This document shows, one piece after another, positions 2-19,578 of a DNA stretch of 22,820 nucleotides (position 1 is the stretch's first letter; each line of letters starts with the position of its first letter). The translations under genes and the position numbers were made by a program. The notes beneath the pieces were generated by a model. It was given only the letters and a program-made list of their open reading frames with translations. It had not been told where the DNA came from and searched no databases. Origin of the DNA: a virus; the IMG/VR virus record IMGVR_UViG_3300032323_000188, positions 1 through 22,820 of that record. One strand, 5' to 3'.

Positions 2-871
2 CGCCTAGGCGACCACCCAAGAACAGTTATTACGACGACCCCTAAGCCAGTACCCCTAATTCGTAAGCTGAACGGCAGAGATGACGGCTCAGTTGTGGTC
101 GTTCGCGGTTCTACCTTCGATAACGCTAAGAACCTAGCACCCCAAGCCCTAGTCGAGTTACAGGCTCGATACAACGGCACACGCTTGGGTCGCCAAGAAC
201 TCTATGGCGAGATCCTAGAGGACATCGAAGGCGCGTTATGGACAAAGGGGCTTATTGAGCGTAATCGCATTACGGAGATTCCCCCACTATCTCGCATTAC
301 TGTATCTATTGACCCTGCGGTAACGAATACCCAAGACTCTGATGAAACCGGAATTATCGTATGCGGGGCTGACGCGCGAGGGTTCGGCTATGTGCTGGGC
401 GATCATTCATTTAAGGGTTCGCCCCTCGAATGGGCGCGTAAGGCGGTCGAGATTTACAAGGAATACAAGGCTGACTCGATTCTCGTCGAGGTTAATCAAG
501 GTGGCGACATGGTAAGCGCGGTTCTCCGCCAAGTAGACGCTACTCTCCCTATCCGCGAGGTGCGAGCGCACATAGGTAAGAAGCTAAGGGCTGAACCTGT
601 CGCTGCCATGTATGAGCAAGGGCGTATTAAACATGTGGGAATCTATGAGAAGCTTGAAGACCAAATGACTATGTGGACGCCCGAAAGCCCTACCTCACCA
701 GATAGGCTCGACGCTATGGTGCAAGGCTTCGCGGATCTGTTAGGCACAACTAATATCTCGAATTACTTTAACGCTATTGCTAACTTCTGTATGAAATGCA
801 ATTTACCTATGCCCAAGTCGCAGAGCCATTGTTCCAAGTGTGGTTCTGTTATGATTCAGCCTGAATCTTAA
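2..871 (+). CDS. terL: Terminase large subunit, C-terminal part (5' end cut by window edge)
   Basis: This is the motor and nuclease that packages phage DNA into proheads. The frame is open to the left edge, so the GTG at 95 is not the real start. The first codons read PRTVITTTPKP, the end of the ATPase domain around the coupling motif. The RNase H-like nuclease follows, with SIDPAVTN (Asp, codon at 311), LVEVNQGG (Glu, codon at 488) and DRLDAMV (Asp, codon at 710), the usual acidic metal ligands. The C-terminus adds a CxxC-x10-CxxC zinc ribbon (codons 788-841), which is not a standard part of TerL. An SD sequence for the next gene follows directly. The small subunit and Walker motifs must lie upstream of the window. 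The assignment is firm. Confidence 0.96.
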   Translation, partial: RLGDHPRTVITTTPKPVPLIRKLNGRDDGSVVVVRGSTFDNAKNLAPQALVELQARYNGTRLGRQELYGEILEDIEGALWTKGLIERNRITEIPPLSRITVSIDPAVTNTQDSDETGIIVCGADARGFGYVLGDHSFKGSPLEWARKAVEIYKEYKADSILVEVNQGGDMVSAVLRQVDATLPIREVRAHIGKKLRAEPVAAMYEQGRIKHVGIYEKLEDQMTMWTPESPTSPDRLDAMVQGFADLLGTTNISNYFNAIANFCMKCNLPMPKSQSHCSKCGSVMIQPES

Positions 872-1163: not shown

Positions 1164-2048
1164 ATGAGGCGCGCTATTTACGGAACAGTCGCTCAACCTA
1201 ATCAAGCTAGCCAACCACAACCAGTATCAGTAGACATTTTCTTGCTTGCTGGTGGCGGTGGCGGTGGTGCTGACTGGGTTTCTGGTGGTGGAGGTGGTGG
1301 CTTTAGAGAGTTCACTGCTTCTTTACTACCTGTAGCGACTCCTTTAACTTTTTCGGTTGGTGCTGGAGGGGCTGCTATTGCTCGTCTTGCAACCAATGAA
1401 GCGACAGGAAGCCCATCTTCTATTTCTGGATCTGGTTTTACTACAATTTCGGCTGCTGGCGGTGGCGGTGCGAAAACTTGGTACGGTCCGCAAACAGGTA
1501 CTGGCGGTTCTGGTGGTGGTGGTTCTCCCGGGAATCAATCTGCGGGTGCAGGAAATACGCCAAGCACCTCTCCTGTTCAGGGCTATGACGGCGGTGTAAG
1601 CGTCGGAGACGGAGCAGCCTCAGCTGCTGGCGCTGGCGGTGGCGGGGCAAATGCCGTAGGTGGAAGTAACTCCGGTAACAACGGAGGAAGTGGTGGTAAT
1701 GGGCGTACCGCAGCAATTAATGGCGGTACATACGGCGGTGGTGGCGGAGCTGGTGGTGGCGATTCAGGCGGATCGGGTGGTTCAGGCGGATCGGGTGGAG
1801 GTGCTAGCGGAGCACCTGCTGGGTATGCAAATAATGGTTTTTCTGCCAACCCAAATACTGGCGGTGGTGGCGGTAGTGGTAACTACGGCGGTGGTAACGG
1901 TGGTAACGGTGGCTCGGGGCTTATCGTTATCAAGTATTTATCAACATTAACTCCGACAATTTCTGGTGGTTTAACGTCGAGCACCGCAACTGCTGGTGGA
2001 TTTAAGACAACAACATTTACGGCAGGAACAGGAACGGTGACTTTCTAA
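1164..2048 (+). CDS. Polyglycine-rich adhesin-like protein (cassette A)
   Basis: A 294-aa protein with a short N-terminal lead and then a Gly-rich domain. It has the hallmarks of the phage-tail glycine-rich domain family: a hydrophobic strand running into a Gly run (VDIFLLAGGGGGG), a second Gly run, LTFSVGAGGAA, many GGxGG blocks, and a closing strand (GSGLIVIKYL). Known relatives include receptor-binding adhesins of gp38 type, where Gly tracts pack as polyglycine-II helices and the loops contact the receptor. The last 40 or so residues (from TPTISGG) are Thr/Ala-rich and end in a likely beta strand. The gene follows 882-1163 with no gap and overlaps the next as TAATG. A receptor-binding role is inferred. 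Its place between terminase and portal is unusual. Confidence 0.8.
   Translation: MRRAIYGTVAQPNQASQPQPVSVDIFLLAGGGGGGADWVSGGGGGGFREFTASLLPVATPLTFSVGAGGAAIARLATNEATGSPSSISGSGFTTISAAGGGGAKTWYGPQTGTGGSGGGGSPGNQSAGAGNTPSTSPVQGYDGGVSVGDGAASAAGAGGGGANAVGGSNSGNNGGSGGNGRTAAINGGTYGGGGGAGGGDSGGSGGSGGSGGGASGAPAGYANNGFSANPNTGGGGGSGNYGGGNGGNGGSGLIVIKYLSTLTPTISGGLTSSTATAGGFKTTTFTAGTGTVTF
1763..1798 (+). repeat. Perfect 18-bp tandem duplication inside the polyglycine gene
   Basis: The unit TTCAGGCGGATCGGGTGG occurs twice in direct succession (1763-1780 and 1781-1798) with no mismatch, encoding the series SGGSGG twice. Identical codons across a Gly tract point to recent replication slippage, which would lengthen one polyglycine helix by six residues while keeping the frame. 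Confidence 0.9.
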
Positions 2049-2443: not shown

Positions 2444-4285
2444 ATGGGTCTAAGAGACCGAATCGCAAAAGCAATAGCAAGAACAGACGTAGAAAAGGCA
2501 GCGCCTAATCTCCCAGCAGGATCGGTTACTATGACCGAACAACAAATGCGCCAAGCCAATGGGGCGATTGGTCAAACATACGGTAACAATGTGCCATTAG
2601 AGCGCAACCCTTGGTTGTCTATGGTTCCATTCGGTCCGGGAAACCCAATTACTCCGGGAGCGATTAACCCACTACGCGCTGACGGTCGCCCAGATCCCCG
2701 ACGCTACGAATACCAAGTAGCACAAAACATAAACATAACTGAAACTCGCCTCGTTCCTTTTAAGACTTTACGCGCAGCAGCCGACCAGATAGATATTATT
2801 CGTCGTTGCGTTGAGGTAATTAAAAGCAAGCTTGTAGGCTTAGAGTTCGACATAGTATTAGGCCAAGACGCAGGAGAAAAGATTCAAGCCAAGTCCGGCG
2901 GAGACCATGTCCGCGCTATGGTGAGCGCTCGCGAAGAATTGACTGATGAGATAGACCGCCTACGCACATTCTGGGAAAACCCAGATAAGGCGAACGGATT
3001 AACTTTCACAGACTGGTTAATGATTGCGCTAGAGGAAGTTCTCGTTATTGACGCGCTCGCTATCTGGCCACAGAAGACAGTAGGTGGAGATTTATACGGC
3101 TTACAGATTCTCGACGGCGCAACTATTAAGCCATTATTAGATGATCGCGGTATGCGCCCAATGGCACCTGCCCCTGCCTTTCAACAGATTTTGTATGGCT
3201 TCCCACGCTCGGAATTCTCAGCCAATAGTGATGACCCGCAAGCCGACGGCGAATTTACTTGTGATGATCTTGCGTACCTCGTGCGTAATCGCCGAACAAC
3301 AAGCCTGTACGGACAATCACCAGTAGAGCGATCCCTCCCTCTCGCAGATATTTATCTTCGACGCCAACAATGGATTCGCGCCGAATACACAGACGGCGTA
3401 ATCCCAGCCATGATGTTTGAGACAGACGCTACATGGGGTACGAACCCAGACCTCTTGCGCGCGTACGAGAATATCCTCAATGACGATCTTGCTGGACAGA
3501 CAGAGCAACGCAAGCGCGCTCGCCTATTGCCTACCGGACTCAAGGCGGTCATGGACGAAGGATACGGAGAAAAGTTCAAGGACACGCTCGATAACTTCCT
3601 CATCGAATCTATCTGTGGACACTTCGGCGTTCAGCCAACAGAGATTGGATACAACCCAAAGGGTGGGCTAGGCGGAGCAGGGTTCGAAGAAGGTAAGGCA
3701 GGTAACGCTGAGGCTCTCGGCGCTCAACCTCTTATCGCATGGCTCAACAAAATGCTCACCAACCTTTCATACACTTACCTCGGTATGCCCCGCGAACTCG
3801 AATTCCGGTTAATGCCAAGCAAGCGCCAAGACGACGAATCAAGCGCGCGTAAGCACCAGATAGAAATTACCTCAGCAGCTAAGACTGTGAATGAGGGTCG
3901 CGCGGAACTAGGCTTACCGCTCTTGGATACCCCACAAGCAGACATGCCAATTCTTCTTGCGGGTCAATCAGTATTGCTATTCAGCCCCGACGGAATTATC
4001 GACGCTATGGCTGGCGGATCTGCGCCACAACTAGAATCAGACGGCGTAACAGAGGTAGAGGGAACAGAAACCCCAGCGCCTAAGGCGGAAGAAGAAGTCG
4101 AGCCTAAAAAGGAAGAAGTCGCGGTAGAGGTTAAAGCCTTTATGAAGTGGGCAAACAAAGGGCGACGCGGTAGGGATTTCGAGTTCAAGACTATCGACTC
4201 GGTAGTTGCCGACGCGCTTAATCGTTGCGCTATGGAAGGCGACCTTGAAACGGCTCGCCAACTAGCCAAAGCGTATATTTACTAA
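2444..4285 (+). CDS. Portal protein
   Basis: A 613-aa protein placed after terminase and before MuF, as expected for the dodecameric ring at the capsid vertex through which DNA passes. It contains portal-like segments: FKTLRAAADQIDIIRRCVEV early, the wing/stem region with LVRNRRTTSLYGQSPVERSL around residues 278-297, then a long helical part with YTDGVIPAMMF. After about residue 535 the protein becomes Glu/Pro/Lys-rich and low in complexity, then ends in a short basic and helical tail (KWANKGRRGRDFEFK and beyond). That tail lies outside the usual portal core and may reach into the capsid. The start is set by an AGGGAGA SD. The stop overlaps the MuF start as TAATG. Confidence 0.93.
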   Translation: MGLRDRIAKAIARTDVEKAAPNLPAGSVTMTEQQMRQANGAIGQTYGNNVPLERNPWLSMVPFGPGNPITPGAINPLRADGRPDPRRYEYQVAQNINITETRLVPFKTLRAAADQIDIIRRCVEVIKSKLVGLEFDIVLGQDAGEKIQAKSGGDHVRAMVSAREELTDEIDRLRTFWENPDKANGLTFTDWLMIALEEVLVIDALAIWPQKTVGGDLYGLQILDGATIKPLLDDRGMRPMAPAPAFQQILYGFPRSEFSANSDDPQADGEFTCDDLAYLVRNRRTTSLYGQSPVERSLPLADIYLRRQQWIRAEYTDGVIPAMMFETDATWGTNPDLLRAYENILNDDLAGQTEQRKRARLLPTGLKAVMDEGYGEKFKDTLDNFLIESICGHFGVQPTEIGYNPKGGLGGAGFEEGKAGNAEALGAQPLIAWLNKMLTNLSYTYLGMPRELEFRLMPSKRQDDESSARKHQIEITSAAKTVNEGRAELGLPLLDTPQADMPILLAGQSVLLFSPDGIIDAMAGGSAPQLESDGVTEVEGTETPAPKAEEEVEPKKEEVAVEVKAFMKWANKGRRGRDFEFKTIDSVVADALNRCAMEGDLETARQLAKAYIY

Positions 4286-5772
4286 TGTGGGGCGCTCATA
4301 AGGTCGATGGGCGTATAGCAGCAAAGAATTCAGTTAAGATCCGCGCAGCGCTACGCCAAAGTATCGACGCCAAAGAGGTGTTCGAAGAGTATTCGCGTAC
4401 CCAACCCAATGTAAGCGATAACATCACGCAAGACCGCGCTCGCGCGCGCGCGTGGGCTATGCTCAATGTGCGCGTAAATACCGAACCTATTACCGCAGCA
4501 CTACGCGCAATTTACGCAGACGGCTATGTATTAGGGGAAGCTTCGGCGCAAGAAGCGGTCGCTCGCGCGCGTAAGGCACAAGATAAAGCCCTAAGTAAGT
4601 CCGACGACGCCTACATAGACTGGTCAAAATGGACTCCCGGCAACAAGGCGACGGCACTATTGCTCCGCCCTCGTGGGGCATTCAAGAAATTCCTAGACGA
4701 CGCTGGCGTTGTAAGCAAGGCTATCGAGAAGGCTGGTTACGATCGTATTGGTACGGCGCTGGCAGATTCGATTGCAGCAGGATTCAGCCCAACCAGAGCA
4801 GCGAAAGTAATCACAGAGAAGATAGGCGACCCCGCGCGAGCGCTGACTATTGCCATAACAGAACAGAATCGCGCCATGAGTGCTGCGACACTATTAACAT
4901 ACCAAGAAGCACAAGTAGAACAGATTGAGTGGAACGCGGTAGAGCCTTGCGACATTTGCGCGCCGAATGACGGACAGGTAGTGAATCTAGGGGAAGCATT
5001 TGATTCCGGCGATACCCAACCACCCGCTCACCCGAACTGCCGTTGCGCTCTATTGCCTGTAATTATGGGTATGGTAGATGATCTCAGCTTGGGGCAAGAT
5101 TTCCTCGACACACTAGGCGGAGCAGATGTAGAAGAGCAAAGATTTCCTGCGAGCCTATCCATTGAAGAAGCCGCAACTATCATTCGCGCAGCAACGCCAA
5201 GAAGCGACAAAGGAGATTACAAACTTGAGGCTATTCAGGAAGCCTTGGGCTTCAATGGCTTACCTAAATTGGTCACAGAACAAGAAATGGAGCAACTTAA
5301 ATCAGAAGGCTGGACAGGCGTTTATCGCGGAGTCAGGAATTTGGGTGTTAAAGATTACCTCGCCCCTGAATTGGTCGCTGAATTTAAAACTGGGAAGCAT
5401 TATCCAGGTTTAGGCATTTTTGGCAATGGTACTTATGCTTCGACAGACATCGTAACTGCTGGGAATTATGCAGAAGGTCGCACAGCGAATCTCATTACTT
5501 TAGCCATTTCCCCCGAAGCGAAAATTATTAACTACAAAGATTTGCAGCTAATGTTGGAGGCGGAGCAAACCCAAGTAATAGATCGCATGGGAGCAAGCCA
5601 GTATGTCCATAGCGGAGAAATGGCGATTTTCAACGACCCGGGAAGGTACGCTGCGTCAAAGGGTTACGACGCTATAATTGTTCCACAACGAGAGAAGAGC
5701 AATCAGCTTACCCAAAGAGACGAAGATTTTTATGTAATCCTCAATAGAACAAAGGTGGCGGTGGTTGAATGA
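4285..5772 (+). CDS. MuF capsid morphogenesis protein fused to an ADP-ribosyltransferase-like domain
   Basis: A 495-aa fusion. Residues 1-265 are an SPP1 gp7/MuF-type head protein with the diagnostic VEPCDIC (C222, C225) and PPAHPNCRC (H249, C252, C254) metal-site signature. Residues 305-495 look like an ADP-ribosyltransferase (ART): VYRGV with R348, a GIFGNGTYAST segment at 377-387 with S386/T387, GNYA at 393-396, GYDAIIV at 460-466, and a final strand DEDFYVILNR with E480. These fit the R-S-E order of ART toxins. MuF proteins carrying C-terminal polymorphic toxin domains, including ARTs, are described for many phages. My hand count gives about 55% GC in 4381-4860 but 46% in 5221-5700, suggesting separate origins. 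MuF is packaged in the head, so delivery into the new host is plausible. Activity is unproven. Confidence 0.88.
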   Translation: MWGAHKVDGRIAAKNSVKIRAALRQSIDAKEVFEEYSRTQPNVSDNITQDRARARAWAMLNVRVNTEPITAALRAIYADGYVLGEASAQEAVARARKAQDKALSKSDDAYIDWSKWTPGNKATALLLRPRGAFKKFLDDAGVVSKAIEKAGYDRIGTALADSIAAGFSPTRAAKVITEKIGDPARALTIAITEQNRAMSAATLLTYQEAQVEQIEWNAVEPCDICAPNDGQVVNLGEAFDSGDTQPPAHPNCRCALLPVIMGMVDDLSLGQDFLDTLGGADVEEQRFPASLSIEEAATIIRAATPRSDKGDYKLEAIQEALGFNGLPKLVTEQEMEQLKSEGWTGVYRGVRNLGVKDYLAPELVAEFKTGKHYPGLGIFGNGTYASTDIVTAGNYAEGRTANLITLAISPEAKIINYKDLQLMLEAEQTQVIDRMGASQYVHSGEMAIFNDPGRYAASKGYDAIIVPQREKSNQLTQRDEDFYVILNRTKVAVVE

Positions 5773-5960
5773 AAGCAGAAATTAGCAGGTTAGCAGCAAT
5801 AATCGTACAAGAAATGCCTATGTCCGAACGCGTCAAGCTGATACCTTTCATCGAAAAAGCGCAATCCCTCAAGGACATTCCTGAGCCTTGGCGGGGGCAA
5901 ATGAAAGCCCTTAAAAAAGACCTAGCCGATCCATACGGCGGTCGCATACAAGAACTCTGA
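5769..5960 (+). CDS. 63-aa ORF overlapping the MuF-ART stop; candidate immunity protein
   Basis: This small, charged, apparently helical protein has no cysteine, signal peptide or membrane segment. Recognisable stretches are IVQEMPMSERVKLIPFIEK and SLKDIPEPWRGQMK. Its ATG overlaps the MuF-ART stop codon (ATGA), so translation is coupled to the toxin-like domain, and the unit ends here: a 75-nt gap follows before the protease. Being small, soluble and translationally coupled just downstream of a polymorphic toxin domain is the usual setting for a cognate immunity gene. I do not recognise a family, so the role is inference; it could equally be a small head accessory protein. Confidence 0.65.
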   Translation: MKAEISRLAAIIVQEMPMSERVKLIPFIEKAQSLKDIPEPWRGQMKALKKDLADPYGGRIQEL

Positions 5961-5963
5961 CCC

Positions 5964-5972
5964 TGCTAAGCT
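5964..5972 (+). promoter_or_regulatory. Extended -10-like element before the protease gene
   Basis: TGC-TAAGCT in the 75-nt gap matches TGNTANNNT, the same pattern seen at 12655 and 22751. A second possible -10, TATGAT, lies at 6002-6007. Neither has a clear -35. A strong SD (AAGGAG) follows about 9 nt before the ATG at 6036. Confidence 0.3.
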
Positions 5973-6035
5973 TAGGGCAAGATTATCTTTACAGTCTGGC
6001 GTATGATTAGCAATAATTCTAAGGAGAATTCATAA

Positions 6036-8021
6036 ATGGCAGAAGGACATGTACCCCCACAAGCGGTTCGTAATAATGCGAAGCGCGGTTTAGAATTACG
6101 CAAGAAGCATGGTCGGGGCGGTACAGAAGTAGGGGTCGCGCGCGCGAGAGATTTATCTAACGGTGCAGCGTTATCATTAGACACAATTAAGCGCATGAAT
6201 TCATACTTTGCGCGCCATGAAGTGGATAAAAAAGGTGAGGGTTGGGGCGTAGATAGCGCAGGTTACATAGCGTGGCTACTCTGGGGCGGTGACGCTGGCA
6301 GATCATGGGCGCGGGGAATCACAAACAGAGCAGAAACCAAGGAGAAATCAACAGTGAACGATTTAACAACGGCATTTTTCGAAATCGTCAAGGCTGATAA
6401 GCGCGACGACGGTACTCTTATGGTTTATGGTAAGGCAACCGACGACTCGCTCGACATTGACCAACAAATCTGCGACCCTCTATGGCTAGATCGTGCTATG
6501 CCTGAGTGGTTCAAGTCAGGCGGTAATATCCGCGAACAACATTCTTCAATCGCTGCGGGAGTAGCTAAGGAATACGAGAAGAAGGCAGACGGACACTACA
6601 TCCACGCTCTCGTGGTCGATCCTATCTCGGTCAAGAAGGTAGATACAGGCGTACTCAAGGGATTTTCTATTGGAATTAAGTCGCCACGCGTAGTGCGCGA
6701 CCAAAAAGCTGCGAATGGACGCATTATCGACGGTCAGATTGTAGAAGTAAGCTTGGTGGATCGCCCAGCCAACCCTAACTGCCAGCTTGTCCTCGCTAAA
6801 AGCGTAGACGGCGAAAGCGGTATGTGGAAAACAGAAGAATTAATCGAGAAGAAAGAAACGAATTACGGTGCGATTAACTCCGGCGGAGAAGGGTCTGAGC
6901 CAGCCGATAAAGATTTATACGCGCGCGTGAAGGCGGAAGCCAAAGAGAAGTTCGATGTTTATCCGTCTGCTGTTGCTAACGCATGGGTAACACGCGAGTA
7001 TAAGAAGCGCGGTGGCGGGTACAAGAAGACGAAAGAAAAGTCAGCCTCTATTGCATTACAATTATCCGAGATTGCAGACGATTCAGAAAAGAGAGCACTA
7101 CTTATGAAGAATGCCCAAGACCTTATTGAACTCTCAAAGTCAATCGCTCCTGCGGATCTTGTAAAATTCGACCAGAAGTTGTACGACGACGCACGACGCG
7201 CGCTCGCTCAACTTATTGTGGTCGAGGCTAACGAAATGGAAGCCGGAAGTAACGAAGAAATGTCTATCGCTCACCTATTGAGCGCAGTACATCACCTACT
7301 AGCATGGTACGGTGGCGAAGTCGCCGAGGGAGAAGTCATGGAACAAGAAACAGAAGATATTGAATTAGCAGCAAAGCCAGAGGAAGAAGAAGAAGAAGGC
7401 GAAGAAAAGGCGTTGTGCGCTGAATGCGATAAATCCAAGAAGGAATGTATGTGCAAAGGCGGATACAAGGCTATGCACAAAGAAGAAAAGAGCGCAGAAA
7501 ACAAGTGCCTAGAGTGCGGTTGCCATTCACCAGCCGACGCACACGGTAGCGACGAAGTAACTACTGCGGAAATGGTTACCCCTGATGAAGCACCTAAGTC
7601 AGCGGAGCCAACCGAAGAAGTAACAGAATTAGCTGACCAAGAACTTCCGGAAGAGGAAGAAACAGTTTCTGAGGGGTCAAATCTCACAGAAGAAATAGAA
7701 GCAATCGTTGAGAAAGCAATCAAGAGTGCTACCGAATCTCTCAAATCAGAGATCGCTACATTGGCTAATGCAAAAGAGGCAGCAGTTAATAAGGCGGTAG
7801 GTTTGGAATCGGATTTAGCAGTTGCGAAGTCACTCGCCGTTGCTGGTGGTCCTAAGCGGACTATCAAGCCGGTAGATCATTCAACAAATGACCTACTTGT
7901 AAAAGCAGCCACATACAAGGCTAAAGCAGACGCGTCTACTGACCCCGATCTTATGAAGGGTTACAAGCTTCTAGCAGAGAAATACTTTGCTGAGGCAGAC
8001 GCGATTACTAAATCCAACTAA
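6036..8021 (+). CDS. Prohead protease fused to N-terminal XkdF-like-context domain and C-terminal scaffold-like region
   Basis: A 661-aa multidomain head maturation protein. Residues 1-95 form a conserved small domain (VRNNAKRGLELRKKHGRGGT, then YIAWLLWGGDAG) found in various phage head proteins. Residues 107-260 are an HK97/S78-type serine protease: REQHSS with H169, VLKGFSIGI with S211, and EVSLVDRPANP at 237-246. Residues 285-330 resemble a DUF5872-like domain (YPSAVANAWVTREYKKRGGG). The remainder is highly acidic and coiled-coil-like with two Cys clusters (CAEC/CMC at 461-473, CLECGC at 491-496), as expected of scaffold. It therefore probably supplies both scaffold and protease and degrades itself after assembly. 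It lies directly before the major capsid gene. Two in-frame internal starts with SD sequences are listed separately. Confidence 0.88.
   Translation: MAEGHVPPQAVRNNAKRGLELRKKHGRGGTEVGVARARDLSNGAALSLDTIKRMNSYFARHEVDKKGEGWGVDSAGYIAWLLWGGDAGRSWARGITNRAETKEKSTVNDLTTAFFEIVKADKRDDGTLMVYGKATDDSLDIDQQICDPLWLDRAMPEWFKSGGNIREQHSSIAAGVAKEYEKKADGHYIHALVVDPISVKKVDTGVLKGFSIGIKSPRVVRDQKAANGRIIDGQIVEVSLVDRPANPNCQLVLAKSVDGESGMWKTEELIEKKETNYGAINSGGEGSEPADKDLYARVKAEAKEKFDVYPSAVANAWVTREYKKRGGGYKKTKEKSASIALQLSEIADDSEKRALLMKNAQDLIELSKSIAPADLVKFDQKLYDDARRALAQLIVVEANEMEAGSNEEMSIAHLLSAVHHLLAWYGGEVAEGEVMEQETEDIELAAKPEEEEEEGEEKALCAECDKSKKECMCKGGYKAMHKEEKSAENKCLECGCHSPADAHGSDEVTTAEMVTPDEAPKSAEPTEEVTELADQELPEEEETVSEGSNLTEEIEAIVEKAIKSATESLKSEIATLANAKEAAVNKAVGLESDLAVAKSLAVAGGPKRTIKPVDHSTNDLLVKAATYKAKADASTDPDLMKGYKLLAEKYFAEADAITKSN
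6339..6356 (+). promoter_or_regulatory. Internal SD and in-frame GTG start of the protease domain
   Basis: AAGGAGA at 6339-6345 lies 9 nt (from GGAG) before an in-frame GTG at 6354. Initiation here would give a 555-aa protein beginning at residue 107 (VNDLTTAFFEIVKA), exactly at the protease domain boundary. This could be a second start or a relic of two once-separate genes. Confidence 0.55.
7326..7340 (+). promoter_or_regulatory. Possible internal SD and in-frame ATG for a nested scaffold
   Basis: GAGGGAGAAG precedes an in-frame ATG at 7338, with 5 nt between GGAG and ATG. Translation from here would give a 227-aa acidic, Cys-containing, coiled-coil protein (starting MEQETEDIE) without the protease, as lambda Nu3 is nested in gene C. 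Spacing is short but workable. Confidence 0.4.
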
Positions 8022-18729: not shown

Positions 18730-19578
18730 ATGGGTCTATCAGTATTTCCTGTTCCAGTTTCGAGCGCTCCTATTGCGCTCGGGGGAATCACCGCGCAAGG
18801 TCTTAATATTCCTACTGGGGTATCTTTACGCGCTACCTATACTTCGTCGCAGACAGGTTTAACTTATCCTTCTGGAATTATTAATGTGTTCGCAATTGTT
18901 ATTGGTGGGGGTGCTGGCGGTGGCAACGGCGGAGGCGGAGGCGGTGGTGGTGGTGGCGTAGCTATGGGTTGGATAAGTGCTCCTGCTAGGCTTACTGTCG
19001 GAGCAGGTGGCGCTGCAGTGAGTGCAGGAGGTTTTTCCAACGCGGGATTACTTGTCGGGGCTGGTGGTGGCAATAGTGGTACGAGTTCTGTTGCGCCTGT
19101 TTTAGGAGCTGGTGGCACTAATGGCGCAGGAAGCGCAGGAGGCGCAGGTTGGGCTTTGAGTTATCCTAATGCAGTTTTAGGCGGTTCAGGTGGCGCAACT
19201 GGTGGTACTGGAGCAGGATCGGGTGGAGCTGGTAATACGACAATTAACAATTTATCTGGTTCTGGCGGAGGCGGTACATTTGTCAGCGGTGGAGTGGGTG
19301 GCGCTGGTGGATTTGGCTTCTTCACTGGTGGCGGTGGTGGTGGATTTAATAACGGTGACGGCTCTGCTGGCACAGGTGGAGCAACTTCTACCTTCGCGGG
19401 TGCTGCTGGTGGCGGAAGTAGTGTGGGCGGTTCTGGTGGAAGTGGATATTTAGCGGCAGGTGTAACCCCTTCAACGTCTGTTGGAGGTGTCGGCGGTAGC
19501 GGTGGCGGAGGTGGTGGCGGAGGTGCTAGTAACTTCGGCGGTGCTGGCGGTGGCGGTGCAGTTCTAATTTATTACTAG
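18730..19578 (+). CDS. Polyglycine-rich adhesin-like protein (cassette B)
   Basis: A 282-aa protein with a 55-residue N-terminal lead (MGLSVFPVPVSSAPIALGG) and then a glycine-rich domain of the same type as at 1164: a hydrophobic strand entering Gly tracts (INVFAIVIGGGAGGGN), LTVGAGGAAV, many GGxGG blocks, and a closing GGAVLIYY. This one is richer in Gly and lacks the extra C-terminal strand region of the first. It sits in the tail-fibre region, where receptor-binding adhesins are expected, and polyglycine-II packing with variable loops is the known architecture of this class. Receptor binding is inferred. Confidence 0.8.
   Translation: MGLSVFPVPVSSAPIALGGITAQGLNIPTGVSLRATYTSSQTGLTYPSGIINVFAIVIGGGAGGGNGGGGGGGGGGVAMGWISAPARLTVGAGGAAVSAGGFSNAGLLVGAGGGNSGTSSVAPVLGAGGTNGAGSAGGAGWALSYPNAVLGGSGGATGGTGAGSGGAGNTTINNLSGSGGGGTFVSGGVGGAGGFGFFTGGGGGGFNNGDGSAGTGGATSTFAGAAGGGSSVGGSGGSGYLAAGVTPSTSVGGVGGSGGGGGGGGASNFGGAGGGGAVLIYY

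What the first reader, a model, noticed from the sequence alone, without database searches (positions are those of the whole stretch)
4285..5772. MuF head protein carries a C-terminal ADP-ribosyltransferase-like toxin domain
Residues 1-265 are clearly MuF (CDIC and HPNCRC). Residues 305-495 follow the ART order: VYRGV (R348), GNGTYAST (S386/T387) and a final strand DEDFYVILNR (E480) after GYDAIIV. GC drops from about 55% (4381-4860) to about 46% (5221-5700) by my count, as if the tail domain were swapped in. MuF-linked polymorphic toxins are known, mainly from prophages. Here there is no sign of lysogeny in the window, so a packaged ART could modify the new host right after injection.
Basis: partly seen in the sequence, partly recalled or inferred. 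Interest (0 to 1): 0.8.

Follow-up and report, generated by a model that had tools for sequence, protein, structure and literature searches.

The report
Phage head protein with swapped-in ART cassette
A virus of bacteria carries, fused to a protein of its capsid, an enzyme domain predicted to modify host proteins with ADP-ribose, and this domain arrived as a ready-made cassette together with a small partner gene that is found beside this enzyme family and probably switches it off in the producing cell.

Summary
Window 4285-5772 encodes MuF (PF04233, E 1e-14) plus a C-terminal domain that no family library covers. AlphaFold2 models the domain well (pLDDT 92, pTM 0.89). The 50 best PDB fold matches are PARP1, PARP2 and PARP4 catalytic domains; BFVD matches include ART-PolyVal proteins.
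Over 44 relatives the constant residues are R348, GNGTY384, Y395, N487 and R488. S386 and E480 vary. This is a PARP/diphtheria-like (H-Y-E-class) pattern with Arg for His and no fixed catalytic acid.
The domain is a swapped-in module. The closest MuF relatives (71-78% identical) end after MuF. Homology breaks at window 5101 and resumes at 5968, where the old MuF tail survives as a fossil (SLGQDYLYSLAYD*).
The roughly 0.87-kb insert also holds a 63-aa gene. That gene belongs to an undescribed family found only directly 3' of this ART: 19 of 19 hits in 38 records, and none in 17 ART-less records.
Best reading: a virion-delivered ART plus an immunity-like partner, akin to Bxa/Bsi but unrelated in sequence. 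Activity, delivery and neutralisation are inferred. An ART-partner co-fold did not confirm docking.

The parts
2444..4285 (+). portal protein gene directly upstream of (and touching) the MuF gene
   Evidence: PF04860 E 2.4e-9, just below its cut-off; ORF list
4285..5073 (+). MuF head-morphogenesis part (residues 1-263) of the fusion protein
   Evidence: PF04233 E 1e-14 at residues 154-256; relatives 71-78% identical that end here
5086..5110 (+). 5' copy of a short imperfect direct repeat (AGCTTGGGGCAAGATTTCCTCGACA, codes SLGQDFLDT) at the left edge of the cassette
   Evidence: homology to short-MuF relatives breaks at 5101-5114
5194..5772 (+). ADP-ribosyltransferase-fold domain (residues about 304-495 plus stop)
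   Evidence: AlphaFold2 pLDDT 92.3, pTM 0.89; PDB fold matches PARP1/2/4; BFVD ART-PolyVal proteins; profile match to 7RB4, E 0.0021
5326..5328 (+). Arg348, motif 1 (YRG), position of diphtheria toxin His21
   Evidence: 43/44; motif aligned with 7RB4 VYRGV, in which Arg replaces His21 (PMC9018708)
5422..5469 (+). motif 2, G380-N-G-T-Y384-x(10)-Y395; spacing equals diphtheria toxin Tyr54/Tyr65
   Evidence: Y384 44/44, Y395 40/44
5743..5748 (+). Asn487-Arg488 after the last core strand; R488 is invariant
   Evidence: R488 44/44, N487 39/44 with 5 Asp
5769..5960 (+). 63-aa partner gene, ATGA overlap with the ART stop; N-terminal Ser-Arg motif; immunity-like
   Evidence: family A5; found only 3' of ART genes
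5102..5967 (+). inserted cassette (ART domain + partner gene), 46.2% GC
   Evidence: contiguous in L119/L120 (L119 5814/5798), absent there; GC
5969..6010 (+). fossil of the ancestral short MuF C-terminus (SLGQDYLYSLAYD*), now non-coding; its start is the 3' copy of the repeat
   Evidence: aligns with L119 SLGQDYLDSLAYD*
6036..8021 (+). next gene downstream (661-aa protein), where synteny with the relatives without the cassette resumes; function not assigned here
   Evidence: weak PF19197 (DUF5872) hit; DNA identity to L120-L122 of about 77-83% from here on

Best explanation
The gene encodes a MuF polymorphic effector. The MuF part places the protein in or on the capsid near the portal. The C-terminal ART-fold domain enters the new host with the DNA and transfers ADP-ribose from NAD+ to a host macromolecule early in infection. 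The small gene translated with it (ATGA overlap) makes a helical partner that binds the ART and keeps it silent in the cell that is making virions. ART and partner move between phages as one cassette spliced into the 3' end of a MuF gene. Shown: the fusion, the fold, the conserved NAD-site motifs, the cassette insertion with its fossil tail, and the exclusive ART-partner linkage. Inferred: enzymatic activity, delivery, and neutralisation by the partner.
For: Fold; sequence profile against 7RB4. Conserved R348/Y384/Y395 with the diphtheria-toxin spacing. Modular tail: of 79 MuF N-terminal relatives the nearest seven have tails of 15-24 aa; others carry this ART or unrelated tails of 200-580 aa. 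Cassette edges and fossil tail. Partner: 19/19 hits in 38 virus records lie 3' of an ART; 15 of 21 ART+ and 0 of 17 ART- records; the one hit in a 4.6-Mb Bacillus genome is also at its ART; the partner follows MuF-fused, Phage_min_cap2-fused and tandem ARTs alike. Precedent: Bxa, a MuF-ART of a Bacteroides prophage, kills E. coli and is blocked by a small neighbour, Bsi (PMC11699363); T4 Alt is packaged and injected (PMC5512222).
Against: No fixed catalytic acid: D/E at 481 in 22/44, anywhere in 480-482 in 30/44, so some members could be inactive or could bind rather than transfer. Foldseek PDB matches are weak (best E 0.01, TM 0.3-0.4). ART+partner folded as one chain gave pTM 0.73 with a well-folded partner: docking not confirmed. 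The partner is not recognised next to ARTs buried in 2-6 kaa polyproteins. A published survey tied MuF toxins to temperate phages (PMC5576092), yet integrase or resolvase is found in only 3 of 21 ART+ records.
Confidence: 0.7

Rival explanations
1. The ART acts inside the producing cell or on virion components (self-modification of portal/head, or protection of the packaging machine), not in the next host.
For: Suggested as an alternative for head-linked ARTs in PMC9503650; the gene lies in the packaging/head operon.
Against: The nearest relatives assemble, as far as the operon shows, without the domain, so it is not needed for head building; a dedicated small partner fits a harmful enzyme better.
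Confidence: 0.15
2. The domain has lost catalysis and serves as an ADP-ribose/NAD binding or decoy module, e.g. against NAD-based defence.
For: No conserved Glu/Asp at the usual strand-5 position; invariant Arg488 instead.
Against: R348, Y384 and Y395 are kept at the positions of diphtheria toxin His21/Tyr54/Tyr65; some PARPs without the Glu are mono-transferases (own knowledge); dedicated partner gene.
Confidence: 0.15
3. The 63-aa protein is not an inhibitor but a loading chaperone that helps the ART domain into the capsid or keeps it unfolded for passage through the portal.
For: Strict linkage in head operons, small helical protein; co-fold does not confirm an active-site dock.
Against: It also follows ARTs that are separate ORFs, e.g. 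in the tandem array of L078; MuF toxins with known partners use inhibitors (PMC11699363).
Confidence: 0.2
4. The C-terminus is an ordinary structural part of MuF.
For: None beyond fusion.
Against: Closest MuF relatives lack it; cassette insertion with fossil tail; ART fold.
Confidence: 0.01

Closest known systems
Bxa / Bsi / BAH (MuF-ART of a Bacteroides stercoris prophage; PMC11699363)
   Same: MuF head domain fused to a C-terminal ART, followed by small genes of which one binds and blocks the ART; tails swap among MuF relatives
   Different: Bxa works through a catalytic Glu (E820) and modifies arginines; the domain here lacks a fixed acid and has a PARP/diphtheria-like Y motif; no ADP-ribosylhydrolase gene noted beside it; partner found only by its own profile, no Pfam family
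ART-PolyVal (PF18760), called Tox-ART-HYD2/N4-type ART in PMC5512222 and PMC9503650
   Same: Closest Pfam family: 6 of 43 members give weak hits (best E 0.0035); fold matches in BFVD; Y-type motif 2; phage effector proteins
   Different: Window domain 14.0 bits against a cut-off of 31.2; Arg instead of the stated strand-1 His; no fixed strand-5 Asp
Diphtheria-toxin-like ARTs (Peptono toxin, 7RB4) and PARPs
   Same: Arg/His-Tyr motifs with the same Tyr-x10-Tyr spacing; 7RB4 has Arg at the His21 position; PARP fold matches
   Different: No translocation or receptor parts; the strict Glu148 equivalent is not conserved; no evidence for the same target
MuF polymorphic toxins in general (PMC5576092); Apk2/Tis1
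   Same: MuF N-terminus, variable C-terminus, small ORF after toxin
   Different: That survey found MuF toxins only in temperate phages; most records here show no integrase; Apk2 is an alarmone synthetase
Cyanophage PSS2 minor head protein
   Same: MuF at the N-terminus and the same ART domain near the C-terminus (E 6e-6)
   Different: Also holds a Zeta-toxin-like kinase and what looks like an R-S-E ART; no partner recognised

Membership tests
ART superfamily | ART fold | tested here: met
   pLDDT 92.3/pTM 0.89 model; the 50 PDB fold matches listed are all PARP1/2/4; BFVD ART-PolyVal hits E down to 5.6e-6
ART superfamily | motif 1 Arg/His on strand 1 | tested here: met
   R348 in 43/44
ART superfamily | motif 2 Tyr or Ser-Thr-Ser | tested here: met
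   Tyr type: Y384 44/44, Y395 40/44
ART superfamily | motif 3 acidic/Gln residue at start of strand 5 | tested here: inconclusive
   D/E at 481 in 22/44, somewhere in 480-482 in 30/44; N487-R488 constant instead
ART superfamily | NAD+-dependent transferase activity | not testable with these tools
   needs protein
   S386 7/44, E480 14/44
ART-PolyVal PF18760 | score over the curated cut-off | tested here: not met
   14.0 bits against 31.2; 6/43 members with weak hits
ART-PolyVal PF18760 | His-Tyr-Asp triad (PMC5512222) | tested here: not met
   Arg for His in 43/44; Asp not fixed
MuF polymorphic toxin | N-terminal MuF domain | tested here: met
   PF04233 E 1e-14
MuF polymorphic toxin | variable, exchangeable C-terminus | tested here: met
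   short, ART, metallopeptidase-like and other tails on 35-78% identical MuF parts
MuF polymorphic toxin | small (<150 aa) ORF directly downstream | tested here: met
   63-aa ORF 5769-5960, conserved family
MuF polymorphic toxin | temperate phage | tested here: inconclusive
   no PF00589/PF00239 in most ART+ records, but records may be fragments
MuF polymorphic toxin | toxicity and neutralisation by the partner | not testable with these tools
   co-fold pTM 0.73 neither shows nor excludes docking

The most novel reading that the evidence does not exclude
A widespread, unnamed family of virion ARTs with an Arg-Tyr-(Asn)Arg site instead of a catalytic acid, usually guarded by its own small Ser-Arg-motif inhibitor, is traded as a two-gene cassette among the head genes of phages of several bacterial phyla, many apparently virulent. 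It would show that toxin-immunity pairs in capsids are not tied to lysogeny, with the Ser-Arg N-terminus of the partner possibly acting as a mock substrate in the ART site.
Probability: 0.35. Interest if true: 0.8.

Novelty: new variant of a known kind. Interest (0 to 1): 0.6.

Why it matters
MuF toxins are common in gut and water phages, but very few are characterised and their role is unknown. This case gives an ART family without a curated model, a partner family not described in the literature searched here, and a natural experiment: closely related phages with and without the cassette, whose insertion scar is still readable. That makes it directly testable what a capsid-borne ART does for a phage, and whether immunity partners exist outside lysogeny.

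Tried and rejected
Tox-GHH nuclease (weak Pfam hit, E 0.07-0.38): rejected, below cut-off and contradicted by the fold. Direct phmmer against the PDB: no significant hit; the profile search gave 7RB4 at 0.0021, suggestive only. PF18760 sought in 250 Bacillota genomes to map catalytic residues by profile alignment: nothing rang, including the controls, so this says nothing. Co-fold of ART and partner (L104, intervening stop read as Ser): both parts fold, relative placement uncertain. Looking for fossil tails beside other cassettes: no hit over the score limit. The partner found no relative in the phage collection by tblastn, because it is short and diverged. Regex sorting of gene architectures missed MuF domains that Pfam sees and is used only for domain counts and position.

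Full report
OBSERVATION. The ORF at 4285-5772 has 495 codons. MuF is certain (PF04233 E 1e-14, residues 154-256; TIGR01641 above cut-off; many PHROG head families). Residues from about 300 on have no Pfam or NCBIfam family. In PHROGs the isolated domain matches only the far end of phrog_16619, 'minor head protein' (E 8e-6; 15 of 43 members match it). The gene sits between portal (2444-4285) and a 661-aa protein (6036-8021), in a terminase-portal-MuF-capsid order; the window is a whole virus record of 22,820 bases, probably a fragment.

RELATIVES OF THE DOMAIN. tblastn with residues 301-495 found the ends of cyanophage PSS2's minor head protein (E 6e-6), Bacillus phage SP-15 gp271 and Gordonia phage gp66/67 beside the portal gene. 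An alignment of five relatives found 61 viral loci, and a wider one found 12 loci in bacterial genomes (Bacillus, Nocardia, Clostridioides, Nostoc and others). In 44 non-redundant sequences R348 is kept in 43, G375, G377, G380, G382, Y384 and R488 in all 44, N381 in 42, T383 in 41, Y395 in 40, N487 in 39 (Asp in the rest). S386 is kept in 7, T387 in 13 and E480 in 14.

FOLD. AlphaFold2 on the 43-row alignment: mean pLDDT 92.3, pTM 0.89. Foldseek against the PDB: the 50 matches listed are all PARP1, PARP2 or PARP4 catalytic domains (E 0.01-0.16, probability up to 0.93, TM about 0.35), weak one by one but of one kind. Against BFVD: PSS2, SP-15, GodonK, a Microbacterium MuF fusion and several ART-PolyVal proteins, E 2e-13 to 1e-3. 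The sequence profile matches 7RB4, a diphtheria-toxin homologue, at E 0.0021 over the Arg and Tyr motifs. That paper reports Arg at the His21 position there and lists His21, Tyr54, Tyr65 and Glu148 as the NAD residues (PMC9018708). Y384 and Y395 have the same spacing as Tyr54 and Tyr65. The Glu148 equivalent is not fixed: Asp/Glu at 481 in 22/44, in 480-482 in 30/44.

A SWAPPED-IN CASSETTE. A scan with the MuF part gave 80 relatives. The nearest (71-78% identity over the MuF part: L119-L125) stop 15-24 residues after the MuF match. Relatives at 44-58% carry this ART (L130, L135, L151-L154), metallopeptidase-like tails with HEWGH or similar (L131, L139, L146, L150), RelA/SpoT-like tails by eye (L155, L163, L168) or others (L127, L138) (class by eye where Pfam was silent). 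At DNA level the window and L119/L120 run together at 75-81%, break at window 5101 and resume at 5968, while in L119 the two edges are contiguous. Just after the 63-aa ORF the window still holds AGCTTAGGGCAAGATTATCTTTACAGTCTGGCGTATGATTAG, which reads SLGQDYLYSLAYD* and matches L119's real MuF end SLGQDYLDSLAYD*. A second, imperfect copy of its start stands at 5086, at the left edge. The ancestral short MuF gene was therefore extended by a roughly 0.87-kb insert that left its old tail behind as a fossil.

THE PARTNER GENE. The insert also holds a 63-aa ORF, overlapping the ART stop by ATGA. A profile from 19 such ORFs, run against 24,364 six-frame ORFs of the loci, gave hits that with one weak exception (E 0.41) sit at or just past an ART stop; a few lie further into a longer ORF that starts there, where the best-scoring piece is internal. 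In 38 whole virus records the ART is in 21 and the partner in 15 of these and in none of the 17 others. All 19 partner hits follow an ART, including hits not among the seeds, such as three ART-partner pairs in a 277-kb record. The only hit in a 4.6-Mb Bacillus genome is beside its ART. Ser6 is invariant and Arg7 nearly so in the family; it has no Pfam family. It is not recognised where the ART is buried in a 2-6 kaa polyprotein; cyanobacterial ARTs are followed by longer ORFs with a similar [SC]R start, below threshold. The linkage argues for a function tied to the ART, most simply inhibition. A single-chain fold of L104's ART and partner gave a helical partner (pLDDT about 85) and pTM 0.73, which does not settle docking.

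LIFESTYLE. Tyrosine integrase is found in 2 and resolvase in 1 of 21 ART+ records, while a 2017 survey saw MuF toxins only in temperate phages (PMC5576092). None of the records has a completeness rating, so this is a hint only.

PRIOR KNOWLEDGE. ARTs on MuF are known and predicted to be injected (PMC9503650, PMC5512222). Bxa shows a MuF-ART that kills bacteria and is blocked by a small neighbour (PMC11699363). New here, as far as the open literature searched shows, are this ART family's site pattern, its partner family and the readable insertion scar. It remains possible that earlier surveys counted some members under N4-type ARTs.

VERDICT. New variant of a known kind; ART fold about 0.95, active enzyme about 0.75, partner as inhibitor about 0.65, delivery with DNA about 0.65 (my estimates).

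Noticed in passing
L078 3153-9737 (327-kb contig IMGVR_UViG_3300028800_000001): Jumbo-phage-sized record with five ART-domain ORFs close together in one stretch and a sixth in a 1022-aa ORF near 270 kb; three of the six are followed by a recognised partner ORF.
   Followed up: partly
L057 2158-6618: One 1487-aa protein joins portal, 2'-5' RNA ligase-like (2H) domain, MuF and this ART.
   Followed up: no
L055 4210-6675; L151, L152, L153, L154: Two-warhead MuF proteins: MuF + weak RelA/SpoT match + ART (L055), and MuF + HEWGH metallopeptidase-like domain + ART (L151-L154); Pfam support is weak.
   Followed up: partly
L127, L129, L132, L137 and L138 (MuF tails of 208-260 aa): Further unnamed C-terminal domains on close MuF relatives of the window, without Pfam families; L127/L129/L132/L137 share one tail type.
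   Followed up: no
L003 281-4780 (cyanophage PSS2 minor head protein): Polyvalent head protein with MuF, Zeta-toxin kinase, a YRG...ESWS...EWE stretch that looks like an R-S-E ART, and the ART described here.
   Followed up: partly
L024 2909-3721, L047, L067-L072, L086-L087: The ART is a separate ORF right after MuF, and the partner-like start (e.g. SRELSKKI) stands at the head of the next long protein, near KHGDHDQSSHG motifs.
   Followed up: partly
window 1164-2048 and 18730-19578: Two glycine-rich proteins of tail-tip/adhesin look, with high GC and GC skew (PF21722 for the first).
   Followed up: no
window 95-871: The terminase fragment ends in a zinc-ribbon-like stretch (CMKCNLPMPKSQSHCSKCG; weak Pfam hits).
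   Followed up: no
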